From Psychrobacter sanguinis (GTDB taxonomy: Bacteria; Pseudomonadota; Gammaproteobacteria; Pseudomonadales; Moraxellaceae), in NCBI RefSeq assembly GCF_020736705.1, contig NZ_CP085990.1, forward strand, positions 744,001-808,000: a DNA stretch of 64,000 nt. The letters run 5' to 3'. Shown here one piece after another: positions 26,773 to 34,948 of the stretch. Each line of letters begins with the position of its first letter. Position 1 is the stretch's first letter. Under the pieces are notes generated by a model. It worked only from the letters and a program-made list of their open reading frames with translations. It did not search any database and was not told where the DNA came from. The translations under genes and the position numbers were made by a program.

Positions 26773-28767
26773 TTAAAAGAACAACTGTAAAGCAGCAGAG
26801 AATTCAGTATCTTGCGTACCGTCAAAGCGTTTATCGGCATAATCGACATCCGCTTTACTAGCGCTGATATCAAATAACCAACGTCTATCAAGTGCCGTAC
26901 CTTTAACATCATATCCTATAAAATTGAGTCCTAAAGTAGCACTCATAGCTTCACTGGTATCATCTTTAAGATCGGTTTCAGATGCTTTTACTATCCCGTA
27001 ATCTGCTCCGATATAAGGCGACCAACGTATCTTTTGGTTGCCTAAGGTTAACCAATTGGACTGCATAGGCTCATAACTCAACGTATTACGTAAGGAGGCT
27101 CCAGATTCTGCAGCACTGTAAACCTTATCGATACCACGGACCCCAGAATAAGTGGACCCCAAGGATTGCTGAGAAATACCATATAGCTGGTCGTTGCTAT
27201 ATTGTCCTTGGAGCTCATGAGTCATTTGCCAATAGCCTTTGTTCTCGCCTGAGGCAATGATAGGATGCTGGTGACTCAAATACCCTGATAATAACCAACG
27301 CAAATAGTCATCACTCAACCCCTGCTTAGTGGCCGGATTATCATGATTGCCAATCCCCTGCTCCGCACTCAAATCGACTACCCAGGCTCCTGTTGTAAAT
27401 TTTCTCGGGTCACTTTTTGAACGTTTATTAAATAACTTAGTATGAGTGGCACCAATACGAGCACTACTTAGAGTCGGACTTTGAATATCTAATTGACTAC
27501 CGAGTACTTCACTGGTGACATCTTGGTGAGCCAACTGTCCATATATTGTGGAGATACTGTCTTGATCTCGATCAAAAGTATAGTCACCACGTAAATTGGC
27601 CTGCCAACTATCACCCGTCTGTTCTAACATTGAATTAAGCAATTTTGTACTGCGGGTATATTCATCTGCAGCTAACAAGGCTGACCACTGCCAACGGCCA
27701 TTAGGGATTAGCGTATAAATGCTGGCACTACGGCGCTGATTGTCCTCATCATAGCCATAATGGTCTGTCAAACTTTGTTGTATCGTCAGTGAGGTTAAGT
27801 CAGCCTGGCCAAAGACATTACGTAAAGTGCTGTGCAGCTTTATTTGATTATGACCATAGCTATCATCTGGATCGTAGCGCCACTCTATATCGCTGTTTAT
27901 TTTTCCTGACTGCTGTTGCTGAGTCACTTGGATACGAACGTCTTTACCCACGGGGAAGATATCGAGCAGTAACGGCCCATCTATGACCCGTTCACCGTTA
28001 CTTACCGCTTGATCAAGTATTGCCATATTCGCAGGCTTATTTACTAACTTTCCAAATAAGCGAGAGGTGGGTAAATCAGTCTGATTATCAATGTTGGTAA
28101 TTTTTGCCACATAAACTTGCCAAAGCGACGTCCCTTGCCCAGTTTGAACAGGGTCAATGGAGATTTTAAAAAACCCTGCTTCCAAATAAGCCGCTGTAAT
28201 AGCTCTAATTAAGTCATTGGCAGCGGTTACCGAGATACATTGAGCCTGATCAATGGCGGCGGTGGATTCGGTAAGTGGTGATATTGCCGATATTTGCTCA
28301 GCGTGTTGGCGTAGCTTAGTCTGTGCCGCTTTGCTTAATTCTGGCATTGCTCCCAGCTCAATACGCTGTATTGGCAAACAGGCGCTTCGCTTAGAATCTA
28401 AAGTTGATTCTGGTTGAATGACTGTTGTATCGGGGGTGGGCTCCAACGATTGCGACTGTCGTAATGAGTCAATACGTTGCTTTTTGAGGGAGTCTTGCCA
28501 AGCCTGTTGCTGCTCTATAGTGTTCTTCCATGTTGGTGTTGGCTGTGATGCTTGTTGATCAGGTAAGTCAGCCGCATTGGCGATGGGAGCGATTAAGATG
28601 CTCAAACTACTTAAACTTAATCCTATTGTGGTGCTTATCATTGTCCGACTAAAGCGATAACGGCTCTCATTATCCTGCATAATTTGCTTAGTAATATACA
28701 GGCCAATGGATTTGGATAGGCCAATAGATCTGGCGTTTTTTATTCTATATATAAATAACATAATCAT
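26773..28767 (-). CDS. TpsB / FhaC-ShlB family outer-membrane transporter
   Basis: A 664-residue two-partner-secretion pore that exports the large TpsA adhesin across the outer membrane. After a long basic N-terminus there is a signal segment (about residues 43-65, ending ANA-AD). Then come a Gln/Pro-rich stretch and a POTRA_2-type region starting at CLPIQRIELGAMPEL (about 132) with its second Cys in AQCISVTAA. The rest is beta-strand-rich barrel with alternating aromatic residues, ending in LQLFF with a terminal Phe typical of outer-membrane barrels. The true start may be M30 (28680), since residues 1-29 fit no signal-peptide pattern. It lies just downstream of tpsA, with a terminator between them. 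Confidence 0.88.
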   Translation of the reverse strand: MIMLFIYRIKNARSIGLSKSIGLYITKQIMQDNESRYRFSRTMISTTIGLSLSSLSILIAPIANAADLPDQQASQPTPTWKNTIEQQQAWQDSLKKQRIDSLRQSQSLEPTPDTTVIQPESTLDSKRSACLPIQRIELGAMPELSKAAQTKLRQHAEQISAISPLTESTAAIDQAQCISVTAANDLIRAITAAYLEAGFFKISIDPVQTGQGTSLWQVYVAKITNIDNQTDLPTSRLFGKLVNKPANMAILDQAVSNGERVIDGPLLLDIFPVGKDVRIQVTQQQQSGKINSDIEWRYDPDDSYGHNQIKLHSTLRNVFGQADLTSLTIQQSLTDHYGYDEDNQRRSASIYTLIPNGRWQWSALLAADEYTRSTKLLNSMLEQTGDSWQANLRGDYTFDRDQDSISTIYGQLAHQDVTSEVLGSQLDIQSPTLSSARIGATHTKLFNKRSKSDPRKFTTGAWVVDLSAEQGIGNHDNPATKQGLSDDYLRWLLSGYLSHQHPIIASGENKGYWQMTHELQGQYSNDQLYGISQQSLGSTYSGVRGIDKVYSAAESGASLRNTLSYEPMQSNWLTLGNQKIRWSPYIGADYGIVKASETDLKDDTSEAMSATLGLNFIGYDVKGTALDRRWLFDISASKADVDYADKRFDGTQDTEFSAALQLFF

Positions 28768-28793
28768 TCATCACGGTCTAAGAAAAATAGAAA

Positions 28794-28819
28794 AACCCAC
28801 ACCTAGGTAGGTGTGGGTT
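28794..28819 (-). terminator. Terminator or attenuator between tpsA and tpsB
   Basis: AACCCACACCT and AGGTGTGGGTT form a perfect 11-bp stem around AGGT. On the minus strand it is followed by TTTTTCTATTTTTC. It sits between the end of tpsA and the start of tpsB. Confidence 0.8.
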
Positions 28820-28939
28820 CCTGTTGACCTACAATTTAAAGCAATAATCTAGTATATCGTTAAATTATAAGCAGTTATAAATTAGCGATGCTTACAGATC
28901 CGTACTTAAAAATTATTGCTTACTAAAAATGCGCGCCCG

Positions 28940-31900
28940 TTATAACTGTACATTGGCTTTGGTGTTGTTTGCATCAGTGTCATCCCATTTGTAGTTTACA
29001 TCCGCATGAACTGGAATGCCAAGATCAACCGGCTTACCTTGTAATGCGTCTGTGACTAGACCAGGAATGGTGCCAACAAACTTAGGGACACTAAATGTTT
29101 TACCATCTACTGAAGCCCCTACTTGGTGCACAAAGTCGTCATTATTATTGCTAATTACTGACGCCCCATTGAGGTTAGATCCTGTCGCACTTACTTTAGC
29201 AGCATTAACATTGATATTACCGCTACCAACAGTTGTGTTTAATGTCTCGGCATTAACATTGGCTTGGTGGGTAATTTTTTGATTATCAACATCAAATCCC
29301 GCTTTACCAGCAACACTTACGCCAAGGATAGTACCATTATTAAAATCGTTTTTGAGGGCATCAATAACATTACCTGCCGTTATGTCATTAACAAATTTAA
29401 TAGGAGACCCATCAACGTTCAACCCCGTATCAACATTGACTTTAACGACTTCATCTTGAGCAGAACTTAAAGCAAGTCCATTTCCAGATGTTGTGGTTAA
29501 TGACTCTGCATCAATATTAGATTGTAAGTTAATATCGTTGCCGGTACTAATGTTTATGTTATCTGCTTTTATAGTGCCTAGACCATAGTATTTGCTATTG
29601 TCCGTTTTCACGTTTAAATGCGAACCTAACGTGTCACTTTCAAAACTTTGAGAATTAGCACTCTGTTTCACAGCACCACCAAGATTTCCGCCGATACCGA
29701 AATTCCCCACGTAATCTTTTGACTCAGCAGCGATAATATTGACATCACCTTTAGCGTTGGCATTAGATAATTCAATACTATTGGCTGTAATGTTCGCCCC
29801 ATCTACACTCAGAGCATTACCTGCTTCATTAGCGGCTACAGTTAAGTCCTTTGTACTAATAGTAGCCCCATGCGCTTTATTGCTGGTTTCATTAACCACA
29901 CCTAAATCGCCACCGAAACCCAACTCTGATAGATCTGGAGCAAAGGCTCCATTACCACTCATTGCTACACCTACAGCACGATGATTATCTTGTGCCGCAG
30001 CGATATTGGCGCGATTACCTTTAATTACCACAGTGTCAGCGTTAATAGTAGCACCATCAACTTGCGCCAACTGTCCACCTGTAGTCGTTAAGTTAGTCAC
30101 ATTAACGTTAGCTGCCTTGGCTTGAGTGTCTTCTTCGCCTAAGTAGTTAAATCCTGCTTGAGCTGAAAAACTTGGTAGAACGCCTGCCCCAGTTGACACT
30201 GCTGCCGGAATAACGGTTAAGCCTACTGAACCGCCTAATTTAGCACCACCAGCGGTAGTCCACTGTTTATCACTATCTTGAGCAATACGAGCTTCCTCGC
30301 CTGCCGTAACATTGTATTGTTTTGCAGTAACATCTTGAGCAGCAGCAGCGCGAGTATCAGCGTTAATGTTCACAGTATCTGCAGTTAAGCTACCTTTAAC
30401 CGCTTTGGCATTGCCTTTTTGCAAATATTGATAAGTACCTTTACCGCCGGCCTTAACGTTTACACTGGTAAAGTCGTTGGTGTCAGCATTAACGCTTACA
30501 TCGCCATGACCACTGTGTCTGGTGGTCACTGTTGAGTCATATGCTGAGTCACCTTTATAGTCATCAGCGCTGATATTGATTTTACCGGCTTTAATTTGAG
30601 TGCCAGAATCAACGGCCGTGTTAAGTGCTGTAATACTCACGGCATCATCTGCCACAATACCTGTGGTATGCGCTGTTTTAACTTCAGTAGTTTCACCTAC
30701 ACCATCGCCAGATAGGCTAATACCACCACCAATGATAGGATTGACACCTGCAAAGACATTTAAAGCAGCGTCACCACCAGCGACTACTTTACGATCAACC
30801 ACTCGGTCGTAAGAAGCATCGTTAATGATATCTTGTCCACTTAAATTTACGGTAGCAGCATTAATTTGTGTGCCTTTATTGGTTAATGTCTCAGCTGCCT
30901 TTAACGATGCATTGTTACCGGCATTAACAGTAGAGTTAACCGCTTGGTATTCATTATGCTCACCGATGATCTGGTCATGCCCAATACTAACGCCAACTTC
31001 AATCCCAGTCGCTCCACCTTTTATATAAGCTTCAGGACCAGTACTTTTATACACTTTACTATTAACAGCCGTTAATGCCTCATTGGCACCCGTAGACACT
31101 TGATTGCCTTCAATGGCCACATTGTTAGCCGCTTTAATATTGGTACCGTTGATACTAACGTCTTGTGCTTTTAAGTTAGCGGTATTAGCAGATAAAGCGC
31201 TACTACGTGAGCCACCTGTTCCTGTAGTGGTAAGTGTCTTGTCCCCTTTTAGAGAACCTGATGCTTCAAAGGTTAAATCTTTAGTTAATTGTGGATCTAA
31301 TAACCCTTTTATACCATTCTTGAAGTCTATGTTCGAGCTGGAATCATTTTCAGCCGTAATATCATAAGTTTCAGTTTTGGTAATATCGGTTGGATTGGCG
31401 GCATTGGTTGTTAAGGCTTTATTAGCATTGGTATCAAGCACACCCATTGCTGCCACATCACTACCAGATATTGCAATATTCTCACCAGTTAATGTCACCT
31501 CTTTAGCAGACAAATCACTGGCCACAGTGTTCTGTGCTAAACGATCGATAGCAAGCTTCTTATCTGTGATATTAAAGGCCGTACCATGACGATCTTCTTT
31601 ATAATCTTGCTCAGTCGAAAAACCATTACTGATATTGACATCGCCTACCGCACGCGCCTGTAACTTATCGCTAGCTTTAATGCCACTTGCGGTAACCTTG
31701 ATATTGCCCTCAGCATTTATAGTCGCGTCTTTGGCATTAATTTGACTGCCAACCTGCGTTGTTTGACCTTTATTATCAATATGGGTCTCACCACCGCCAA
31801 TACCGCCCCAGTACTTATAGTCTTCCTCATTTGTTTGACGATTGGTGGTAGTACTACCGGCTACTGTCAAATCTTTAGCGCTATTTAGTGTAGCTGTATC

Positions 31901-33455
31901 AGCAGTTAATTGAACCCCTTCTAAACGCTGCTCCCCACCGCTCGTTAAGCTTACGCTATTGCCGGAAATATCAGTCTGATATCCCTTTTGAGTGGCTTGT
32001 GTAATGTCATGTGAGCCTGTTTTTAAATCGGCAGTTTCACGAGCATAACGATTAATAGCGCTATGTGAATCTTCAGTATGTTCATTGGTAGCGACCAAAT
32101 CATTACCAGAAGTTAAGGCGACATTTGACCCTTTAATGGTTGTTCCAGCAAGTTTAAGGTCTCCTGCTGAGTTAACATTAATACCCTCTGCAGCGTTAAG
32201 CTGCGATTGATGATATTGCTGACTCTTATCAAGAGTTTCATTTTCATTAAACCACAGACCTTTAGTATTACGCGCCGTTGCACTATCAGTGTGGGTAGTT
32301 GTTACACCACCAATATCAATATTACTACCTGTCGCATCGATATTAGTGCCATCAATTTTACTGCCTTTAACGACCACATTGTTACCGCTAAGTGCAATAT
32401 TCTCACCTGTAATAGAGGACCCTTTAAAACTTTCAACCTCTTTATAGCCTGAGTTAGTTAACGTTACATTGTCTTCAAGCTTCTGTTGGTTTTTGTCTAA
32501 ATCTATGCGAGCGGTTTGTACCTCCCCGCCAATAGAAAGTTGTTTGTTACCAGCAAGTGAGACATTATTAGCTGAAATTTGGCTATCCGAAACTTTTAGG
32601 GTATCTGCAGCAGCATCAAAGTCTTGAGCAGCATTGAATTGACCTTGTAAAGTTTGGGTGGCATCCGTATCAGTATTGTGCAGGCGAATACGGCCAGAGT
32701 TCATACTTCCTAAGATTTGACCATCTAAAGTCACATGCGGCTGTGATCTTTCATGGCTGCTGACATCAAGTGTGTCATAGTCAATATTATTACGACCAGA
32801 AATAACATTAATGGCTTCAGAAGCCTTAATATTGCCATTGATATCAACCTTAGGAGCGAGTAGATCCAAACGCTGATTGCCATTTATGTCACCACTTAAA
32901 GCAAGTGTTTTACTAGTGCGATCGCCGACGCTAAAACCTGCCAAACGGTCTTCTGCTATCGTAGGGGTACCCACTACCAAAGACGCACGATTGGTATTGA
33001 TAAAGCCTATATCTTTACCCGTGATGCCATTTGGGTTAGCTAGCACATAGTCAGCGGCCATCCCAAATACTTCTTGTTGCCCTAACAATAATGAAGGATT
33101 CTTACTGACTACTTCATTCAGAATAATCGATGCCGTGCCTTTCAAATTACTGTTGGCATCAAGTTGACCGGCAAGCTGGGATTGTCCTGATTGCAGTGAG
33201 TTATTTAAGACTGCCCCTGATTTACTAACGTTAAAATCTTTATATTGGTTATGAGAAAGGCCTTTGGCCTTTGGCATTTGGATTGGCAATATTAACCACA
33301 TCCACGTCGCCCACTTTACTCACACTAGTTTGCCCTACTGGTCTAATATTATCAGCCAGTGCAGCGACACTTAGCATTGGCAGTATCAAAGCTAGACTAA
33401 CTGCACTTGCAATTCGACCCTGAGAAGAAAGTTTAAAACCTTTTTTAGTATTCAT
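28940..33455 (-). pseudogene. TpsA filamentous-haemagglutinin-like adhesin, frameshifted near the 5' end
   Basis: A secreted beta-helix exoprotein of about 1,500 residues, read in two frames. Frame one (33249-33455) starts at an ATG with TAGGGCG seven bases upstream. It encodes a signal peptide (RIASAVSLALILPMLSVAALA) and VVNIANPNAKG, then shifts and stops. Frame two (28940-33301, 1453 residues) continues with GLSHNQYKDFNVSKSGAVLNNS, the hallmark of the TPS secretion domain, and then long Ser/Asn/Thr/Gly-rich haemagglutinin-type repeats. The break is an extra copy of a 7-bp repeat (33261-33274); removing one copy restores NPNAKGLSHN exactly. No C-terminal toxin domain or immunity gene is seen, so it looks like an adhesin, not a CDI toxin. 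It may be dead, phase-variable or a sequencing artefact. Confidence 0.85.
33261..33281. repeat. Heptanucleotide tandem repeat causing the tpsA frameshift
   Basis: CCTTTGG, CCTTTGG and CATTTGG stand in tandem on the plus strand. The two identical copies shift the tpsA frame by one; one copy fewer would give an intact reading frame. Confidence 0.88.
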
Positions 33456-33982
33456 AATCGCGCCCTATTTAATAAAACTGATTTACTTAACCCAATTCAT
33501 TAGTTTGCCCAAACTAACGAGGGGAATGCGCAATGGAAACCCTTGCCATAGGAGTTTCCGACCTTTGAAATTATTTTTAAATTTTCAATAAAATCAAGGC
33601 CATATCTATATAATCAAATAAATATGACATTCCTATTACAGATTACATTTTGGTTACACTTACTGTTCATATCATTAATAATGATTGCTTGACCGTCAGC
33701 CTCATCTCAATTTAATCCTTTATTCTCATTAAGTTGAGCAAAAGATATACCAACTTTTAATATTTTAGATATATAAATAAAAAAATCGCTTTTAGAGTCC
33801 TAAAAGTGGCTCTTATAATCTAATAAAAGTTTTAGATAAAATGTATCGCTGTTTAAAATATTAGACTTACTTTGTTTTACATTAGATTTGTTTAATGTAT
33901 ATATAATAATTTATGGAATGATTTCTTTAGCAGGGTGGCTGTATAAAATTAACTATAAGAACATATGTCACAGGATCAAAGT
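33456..33982. other. tpsA leader and divergent regulatory region
   Basis: AT-rich, about 530 bases, between tpsA (minus) and the first zinc-ribbon gene (plus). TTAGTTTG-CC-CAAACTAA (33500-33517) is a perfect palindrome close to the tpsA start and could be an operator. GGAAAC and GTTTCC arms lie at 33535-33559. CTTTTAG-AGTC-CTAAAAG lies at 33789-33806. A TATAAT word at 33902-33907 could be a -10 box for the plus-strand gene, but I find no matching -35. Confidence 0.5.
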
Positions 33983-34321
33983 ATGGAAAACGTTTCCGAT
34001 AAAGACACGAAGTCGATTGACAGCCTCGTTACGATATTAGAGAGGCACTCAATGCAGTGTCATTGTGGTGGTTTAGCCCCGCCTGCTGCTATTGAGGGTC
34101 ACTCATATAAGTGCCTGACCTGTCATGAAAGCCAAGAAGGAATTAGTTATAATTTTAATAGATTAATACCTAGCCTTTCCCAGTTTAAGAACTCATCGTC
34201 CAAACCCAGTAATGAAATAGACTGCTTTAACCAAGCGATAGAAACATTACGTGTCAAAAGTCCCGTTATCAATACCTCTTCTAGTAAATTAAAAAAATTG
34301 TGGAAACGAATAAAACATTAA
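33983..34321 (+). CDS. Small zinc-ribbon-like protein of unknown function, copy 1
   Basis: 112 residues from the start I choose. I do not recognise the family. CHCGG (C26, C28) and YKCLTCH (C44, C47) make a C-x-C...C-x2-C arrangement resembling a small zinc ribbon. The C-terminus is strongly basic (KLKKLWKRIKH). The frame also opens at 33965, but the ATG at 33983 has AGGA about eight bases upstream and matches the start of copy 2. It is about 77% identical to copy 2 without gaps (26 differences in 112), including all the Cys residues. The paralogues and their flanks repeat at exactly 627 bases, so this is a tandem duplication. A nucleic-acid-binding role is only a guess. Confidence 0.75.
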   Translation: MENVSDKDTKSIDSLVTILERHSMQCHCGGLAPPAAIEGHSYKCLTCHESQEGISYNFNRLIPSLSQFKNSSSKPSNEIDCFNQAIETLRVKSPVINTSSSKLKKLWKRIKH

Positions 34322-34609: not shown

Positions 34610-34948
34610 ATGGAAAATGTTTCTGATAAAGGCATGAGATCAGTTGACAGCATCGTTACGATATTAGAAAGACACTCGATGCAATGTCACTGTGGAGGTC
34701 TAGCTCCACCTGCTACTATCGAAGGTCGCTTATATAAGTGCTTAACCTGTCATAAGAGCCAAGAAGGAATTAATTATAACTTTGATAGACTAATAGCTTC
34801 ATTCTCTGAATTTAAAAACTCATCTTCAAAAACCAATAGTGAAATAAATTGCTTTAACCAGGCGATAGACATATTACGTCGTAAAAGTTCTGTCATCAAT
34901 ACCTCTTCTAATAAATTAAAAAAACTATGGAAACGATTAAGACGTTAA
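34610..34948 (+). CDS. Small zinc-ribbon-like protein of unknown function, copy 2
   Basis: 112 residues, the downstream paralogue of the gene at 33983. It keeps the Cys pattern CHCGG...YKCLTCH, the central FKNSSSK stretch and the basic tail (KLKKLWKRLRR). AGGA at 34599-34602 is seven bases before the ATG. Most differences from copy 1 are conservative, and there are no gaps or stops, so both copies appear to be under selection to remain functional. It has its own terminator, shared with convergent pnp. The function is not recognisable from sequence. Confidence 0.75.
   Translation: MENVSDKGMRSVDSIVTILERHSMQCHCGGLAPPATIEGRLYKCLTCHKSQEGINYNFDRLIASFSEFKNSSSKTNSEINCFNQAIDILRRKSSVINTSSNKLKKLWKRLRR

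What the first reader, a model, noticed from the sequence alone, without database searches (positions are those of the whole stretch)
33249..33301. Heptamer duplication frameshifts the TpsA adhesin: possible on/off switch
Two identical CCTTTGG copies (33261-33274), next to a third imperfect one, put the signal peptide and the TPS domain in different frames. Deleting one copy restores NPNAKGLSHNQYKDFNV, exactly what the family shows. The rest of the gene (more than 4 kb) stays open, so the gene has not been decaying long. Slipped-strand change in copy number would switch secretion on and off.
Basis: partly seen in the sequence, partly recalled or inferred. Interest (0 to 1): 0.72.

Follow-up and report, generated by a model that had tools for sequence, protein, structure and literature searches.

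The report
Seven-base duplication silences a secreted adhesin
In this Psychrobacter genome a seven-base tandem duplication splits the gene of a large secreted adhesin-like protein into two reading frames; the same break appears in one other database sequence on a slightly different gene version while intact versions also exist, so it looks like a variant carried by part of the population and possibly a slow on/off switch, but not a proven one.

Summary
On the minus strand a 68-codon ORF with the signal-peptide region (33455-33249) and a 1,453-codon ORF with the rest of the TPS domain (33301-28940) lie in different frames, split by a perfect tandem CCTTTGG pair (33261-33274). The five genus orthologues found lack the seven bases, and a 96%-identical protein (P0001) is full length. 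One database ORF (P0121) has the same shifted tail but differs from the window at two residues, sharing one derived residue with intact P0001. So the duplication is very likely real, polymorphic and on two haplotypes, through recurrence, reversion, recombination or a second change at residue 31. The gene body shows no decay (no gaps against P0001; 23 against 17 derived replacements).

A dedicated phase switch is not shown: about 2.4 repeat units, no repeat tract in the five orthologues, no reads to test for mixtures. Best reading: an OFF allele made by a short tandem duplication, reversible in principle at low rate, like the short duplications known in pneumococcal capsule genes. The genome has a second, intact TpsA elsewhere and one TpsB, so secretion capacity is probably kept.

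The parts
33261..33274 (-). perfect tandem heptamer pair (CCAAAGG twice on the coding strand) that breaks the frame
   Evidence: seven columns absent in 5 of 5 orthologues
33259..33275 (-). full period-7 run of 17 bases, about 2.4 units; imperfect further unit at 33275-33281
33249..33455 (-). short ORF, 68 aa: signal-peptide region and start of the TPS domain, ends in the shifted tail AKGQRPFS
   Evidence: database relative P0121 with the same tail
28940..33301 (-). TPS-body ORF, 1453 aa, without the signal-peptide region: most of the TPS domain plus haemagglutinin repeats
   Evidence: PF05860, PF13332; TIGR01901
26773..28767 (-). tpsB: ShlB/FhaC-type outer-membrane transporter, open, 664 aa; the only match to PF03865 in this genome
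28791..28822 (-). terminator-like hairpin (14-pair stem, T-rich tail) between tpsA and tpsB
   Evidence: consensus match only; 7 such sites found in the region, 6.4 expected from shuffles

Best explanation
This is a natural OFF allele of a two-partner-secretion exoprotein gene (tpsA) in Psychrobacter. A seven-base tandem duplication, probably a replication slip at a stretch coding for the conserved NPN-AKG motif, put the signal-peptide region out of frame with the body. Translation from the normal start gives a 68-residue peptide; the body is not secreted, because its own frame offers only a start without a signal peptide (inference). The allele exists beside intact alleles in the same or a very close species and occurs on at least two haplotypes. 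Loss of one unit is physically possible at low rate, so the change is potentially reversible, but it is not a built hypermutable switch. Shown: duplication, frame break, open body, intact relatives, a second ORF with the same shifted tail. Inferred: slippage origin, the DNA cause in the second ORF, loss of secretion, low-rate reversibility.
For: Frames and repeat. Seven extra bases against 5 of 5 genus orthologues. Signal-peptide region in frame in 14 of 14 database proteins at 50-96% identity, P0001-P0014 (by eye). P0001 is 96% identical, 1502 aa, cluster of 62 sequences. P0121: 68 aa, 66 of 68 identical, same tail; V24 and T31 as in P0001, D50 and V54 as in the window. No decay: 1441 aligned residues without gaps, 51 differences, 23 derived in the window, 17 in P0001, 11 unpolarised (two-sided binomial p 0.43). 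dN/dS of the body 0.093-0.103 against four relatives, 0.125 between two relatives without the window. Precedent for short tandem duplications inside an ORF: pneumococcal capsule genes (PMC4022640, passages).
Against: Its cluster has two members, one of which may be the window's own ORF. The 62-member P0001 cluster (90% identity) may include shifted body ORFs, so allele frequencies are unknown, and that P0001 is of the same species was not tested. A very recent loss would also leave no trace of decay. The dN/dS values mostly measure the time before the duplication and are rough: synonymous change against three of the four relatives is near saturation (dS above 2; 0.82 against bin7), and against bin11 it could not be computed.
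Confidence: 0.66

Rival explanations
1. A true phase-variation switch: gain and loss of a heptamer unit turns exoprotein secretion off and on within populations and is maintained by selection.
For: Shifted and intact alleles coexist, and the duplication is not congruent with a nearby substitution (residue 31), as expected with repeated gain or loss. Related TpsA adhesins are phase-variable elsewhere: HMW1/HMW2 with 7-bp promoter repeats (PMC13192263, passages), FHA with a G tract (PMC7446907, passages). The shifted site as single-stranded DNA can form a hairpin (z -2.14; 8 of 200 shuffles fold as well).
Against: About 2.4 units, far below usual tracts (general knowledge); no repeat tract in 5 of 5 orthologues; recombination or a second change at residue 31 explains the haplotypes as well; no reads or colonies tested.
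Confidence: 0.15
2. A one-way loss-of-function allele at the start of pseudogene decay, spread by descent or recombination.
For: The frame is broken near the 5' end; the second intact TpsA could relax selection; 23 against 17 derived replacements lean slightly this way.
Against: No stop in the 1,453 codons and no gap against P0001 in 1441 residues; the 23:17 excess is not significant.
Confidence: 0.15
3. Assembly error in the window genome.
For: No reads could be inspected.
Against: The same shifted tail is in a database sequence that differs from the window at two residues and so is not a copy of it, though its source is not shown; the assembly is 4 contigs, rated 100% complete with 0.19% contamination.
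Confidence: 0.02
4. Programmed ribosomal frameshifting joins the two frames, so that the gene is ON in spite of the duplication.
For: The two ORFs overlap (33301-33249).
Against: A +1 (or -2) shift would be needed; reading the overlap by eye, without a tool, I see no canonical slippery sequence. 5 of 5 orthologues and 14 of 14 database proteins need no shift.
Confidence: 0.02

Closest known systems
Pneumococcal capsule phase variation by spontaneous tandem duplications (cap8E/wchA, tts, type 3 locus; Waite et al. 2001, 2003, which I saw only as cited in PMC4022640)
   Same: short tandem duplication inside an ORF; loss of one copy would in principle undo it; PMC4022640 expects a reversion frequency of at most about 1e-5 for up to nine bases
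   Different: there phase variation is in the titles of the cited papers (that rates follow duplication length is recalled); here no reversion was tested, and the gene is an exoprotein
HMW1A/HMW2A adhesins of Haemophilus influenzae (PMC13192263, passages)
   Same: TpsA adhesin genes with 7-bp repeats
   Different: repeats in the promoter and graded expression; here about 2.4 units inside the coding frame
FHA (fhaB) of Bordetella pertussis, G-tract phase variation (PMC7446907, passages)
   Same: frameshift in a TpsA coding region makes exoprotein-negative variants
   Different: homopolymer of 10 G; mixtures in all 49 clinical strains of that paper; here no tract and no read data
neuO of E. coli K1 (PMC9659370, passages)
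   Same: heptanucleotide repeats within a coding sequence, slipped-strand mispairing
   Different: a repeat region in an acetyltransferase gene; not an exoprotein
MchA1/MchA2 with MchB in Moraxella catarrhalis (PMC3045334, passages)
   Same: two TpsA proteins with one named transporter in a related genus (sharing of TpsB is inferred here)
   Different: no frameshift is mentioned in the passages I saw

Membership tests
TpsA two-partner-secretion exoprotein | TPS domain and haemagglutinin repeats | tested here: met
   PF05860 E 3.5e-31, PF13332 E 4.4e-20
TpsA two-partner-secretion exoprotein | signal peptide and TPS domain in one reading frame | tested here: not met
   not met in this allele; met in 5 of 5 genus orthologues and 14 of 14 database proteins (by eye)
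TpsA two-partner-secretion exoprotein | cognate TpsB nearby | tested here: met
   ShlB family protein directly downstream
TpsA two-partner-secretion exoprotein | secretion and adhesion activity | not testable with these tools
   family names only
Simple-sequence-repeat phase-variable locus | multi-copy repeat tract | tested here: not met
   17-base period-7 run, about 2.4 units
Simple-sequence-repeat phase-variable locus | copy number varies within the species | tested here: inconclusive
   intact P0001 against shifted window and P0121, by protein only, species not tested
Simple-sequence-repeat phase-variable locus | hypermutable, mixed populations, reversible | not testable with these tools
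   no reads, no colonies
Short tandem-duplication switch (pneumococcal capsule type) | exact short tandem duplication inside an ORF that breaks the frame | tested here: met
Short tandem-duplication switch (pneumococcal capsule type) | spontaneous precise reversion | not testable with these tools
   homoplasy with residue 31 is suggestive only
CdiA contact-dependent inhibition toxin | C-terminal toxin domain | tested here: not met
   only TPS and haemagglutinin families matched in Pfam and NCBIfam scans; an undescribed domain is not excluded

The most novel reading that the evidence does not exclude
A minimal, two-unit heptamer works as a reversible switch of one of two TpsA exoproteins that share a single TpsB, so that the cell changes which exoprotein it exports without any visible repeat tract; searches for phase-variable genes that look for long repeat tracts would miss loci of this kind.
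Probability: 0.15. Interest if true: 0.62.

Novelty: new member of a known kind. Interest (0 to 1): 0.38.

Why it matters
Short tandem duplications are easily written off as pseudogene mutations. A case in which the same seven-base break appears on two haplotypes beside intact alleles, in an otherwise unharmed exoprotein gene, is a concrete place to ask whether two-unit repeats act as slow switches. It would also bear on how one transporter serves two exoproteins.

Tried and rejected
Assembly error: held unlikely because of P0121. Long-standing pseudogene: rejected, no decay. Programmed frameshift: considered, no support. CDI toxin: no toxin family matched. Hypermutable tract: not present, none in 5 orthologues.

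Led nowhere: a search with the first 150 residues of the body ORF to find shifted fragments (27 hits at E up to 1e-20 among 75 candidates, highest identity 71%, so none from this species); a viral-contig scan with a 24-base piece (0 matches); plasmid matches of contigs C2 and C3 to name the host (best full-length match a Psychrobacter sp. plasmid; no species name for the window). One search had two loci in the wrong orientation (L004, L007) and was replaced; no count rests. Paper searches: (phase variation, two-partner secretion, frameshift: 21 papers, 20 listed), 36, 37, 43, 47 and 50 for precedents; (Psychrobacter with two-partner secretion, 5 papers listed; Psychrobacter with phase variation, 7 papers listed), where no listed title is on this locus; of these 12 I opened one (PMC3045334, passages). 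Papers opened, all by passages found with terms: PMC12817950, PMC7446907, PMC13192263, PMC3045334, PMC9659370, PMC9248902, PMC4022640; of PMC8339072 the abstract and outline. PMC12817950, PMC9248902 and PMC8339072 carry no argument here.

Full report
What is there. On the minus strand a signal-peptide ORF (33455-33249, 68 aa) runs into a stop just after the repeat, and the body of a TpsA exoprotein follows in another frame (33301-28940, 1453 aa). The signal peptide is called by eye; no predictor was run. The body carries Pfam TPS (from profile position 26) and haemagglutinin repeats, NCBIfam adhes_NPXG, and matches 12 distinct sequences of solved structures, 11 named Hemolysin and one Filamentous hemagglutinin. 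A ShlB-type TpsB follows (26773-28767). 'Adhesin' rests on family names; adhesion was not tested.

Is it more than chance? Tandem heptamers as such are not rare: 4 lag-7 runs of at least 7 matches in the window, 3.7 on average in 100 simulated windows; runs of 10 or more occur in 12 of the 100. The weight comes from comparison. Of 105 genomes of the genus, this one included, 19 had a match. In 5 of 5 the alignment shows a seven-column gap against the window at this place, and the frame is open from the signal-peptide region into the body (in bin11 the contig ends inside the gene). The other 13 matching genomes hold more distant TpsA genes (30-40% identity, over the N-terminal part) and were not used. 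In the protein database (778 proteins at E up to 1e-3 among the 7,998 candidates scored, 120 listed) the 14 relatives at 50-96% identity (P0001-P0014) all begin with a signal-peptide-like region in frame; I looked at the N-termini of 27 of the 120, and the other 13, at 34% identity or less, were not counted.

Intact and shifted alleles. P0001 is 96% identical over the body, 1502 aa, with 62 member sequences. A search with the 68-residue ORF had one candidate and one hit, P0121: 68 aa, 66 of 68 identical, with the same shifted tail, one 530-base contig, two member sequences, source shown as '-'. The tool uses '-' for proteins that the window itself encodes; P0121 is not letter for letter the window's, so I take the window's ORF to be the other member (inference; the second TpsA of this genome is likewise listed as P0079 with '-', nearly identical by eye). 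P0121 has V24 and T31 as P0001 does, but D50 and V54 as the window does; the outgroup P0002 has V24, A31, G50, V54. So T31 is derived and is found with and without the shift, while the window has A31 with the shift. The duplication must then have arisen or been lost more than once, or recombination or a second change at residue 31 has mixed the pattern within about 100 bases. Proteins alone cannot resolve this. It does make an assembly error very unlikely.

No decay. Over 1441 residues the window and P0001 differ at 51 positions without gaps; 23 are derived in the window, 17 in P0001, 11 unpolarised (p 0.43). dN/dS of the body against four relatives is 0.093-0.103 and could not be computed against bin11; between bin7 and P. 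lutiphocae, without the window, it is 0.125. For the N-terminal piece (61 codons) it is 0.078-0.143 in four relatives and not computable against G045. tpsB gives 0.046 against bin7 and is not computable against two others. dS is 0.82 for the body against bin7 and above 2 against the other three, so these ratios are rough, and they mostly reflect the time before the duplication.

Why there? Among the relatives, lag-7 matches in the block are 4 to 9 of 16, the longest run being 5, in P. lutiphocae. The conserved NPN-AKG codons thus give some self-similarity, and a slip is a natural origin (inference). The shifted strand can fold a hairpin as DNA (-8 kcal/mol, z -2.14, 8 of 200 shuffles as good), a modest, post hoc observation.

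The second exoprotein. The genome holds another TpsA, open from its start (L035:6109-10464, 1451 aa), with no TpsB next to it and one PF03865 match in the whole genome, the window's. Of the five relatives, G073 and G032 likewise have two TPS proteins and one TpsB; G039 has four and three; G045 and G074 one each. So TpsB is probably still needed for the second exoprotein (inference), which would explain why it stays intact. A terminator-like hairpin lies between tpsA and tpsB (such sites are not more frequent in the region than in shuffles), so how tpsB is transcribed is open.

What it works like, and what it is. It works like the short-tandem-duplication variants of pneumococcal capsule genes; a paper on those expects reversion at no more than about 1e-5 for insertions of up to nine bases (PMC4022640, passages). 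It is not a member of the repeat-tract class (HMW promoters, PMC13192263; fhaB G tract, PMC7446907; neuO, PMC9659370), because the tract is missing. Phase variation of TpsA proteins is thus known in kind, and this is a new instance of a frameshift allele, with switching unproven.

Limits. No reads, no DNA for P0001 or P0121, no named strain, no test that P0001 and P0121 are of the window's species, no count of alleles. The 62-member cluster may mix intact and shifted genes.

Noticed in passing
L035:6109-10464 (own genome C1, about 76-80 kb): A second, open TpsA (1451 aa) without a TpsB beside it; the genome has a single PF03865 match, the TpsB in the window.
   Followed up: partly
28791-28822: Strong terminator-like hairpin between tpsA and tpsB; a similar sequence is visible by eye after tpsA in L004 and L007.
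   Followed up: no
33965-34321 and 34610-34948: Two small neighbouring ORFs (118 and 112 aa), 77% identical to each other, with a CHCGG...CLTCH cysteine pattern; no Pfam or NCBIfam match.
   Followed up: partly
L036 (own genome contig C2), 10365-15000: Stretch matching, in two overlapping parts at 99.9-100% identity, plasmid records with tet(H) in Psychrobacter, Moraxella and Acinetobacter.
   Followed up: no
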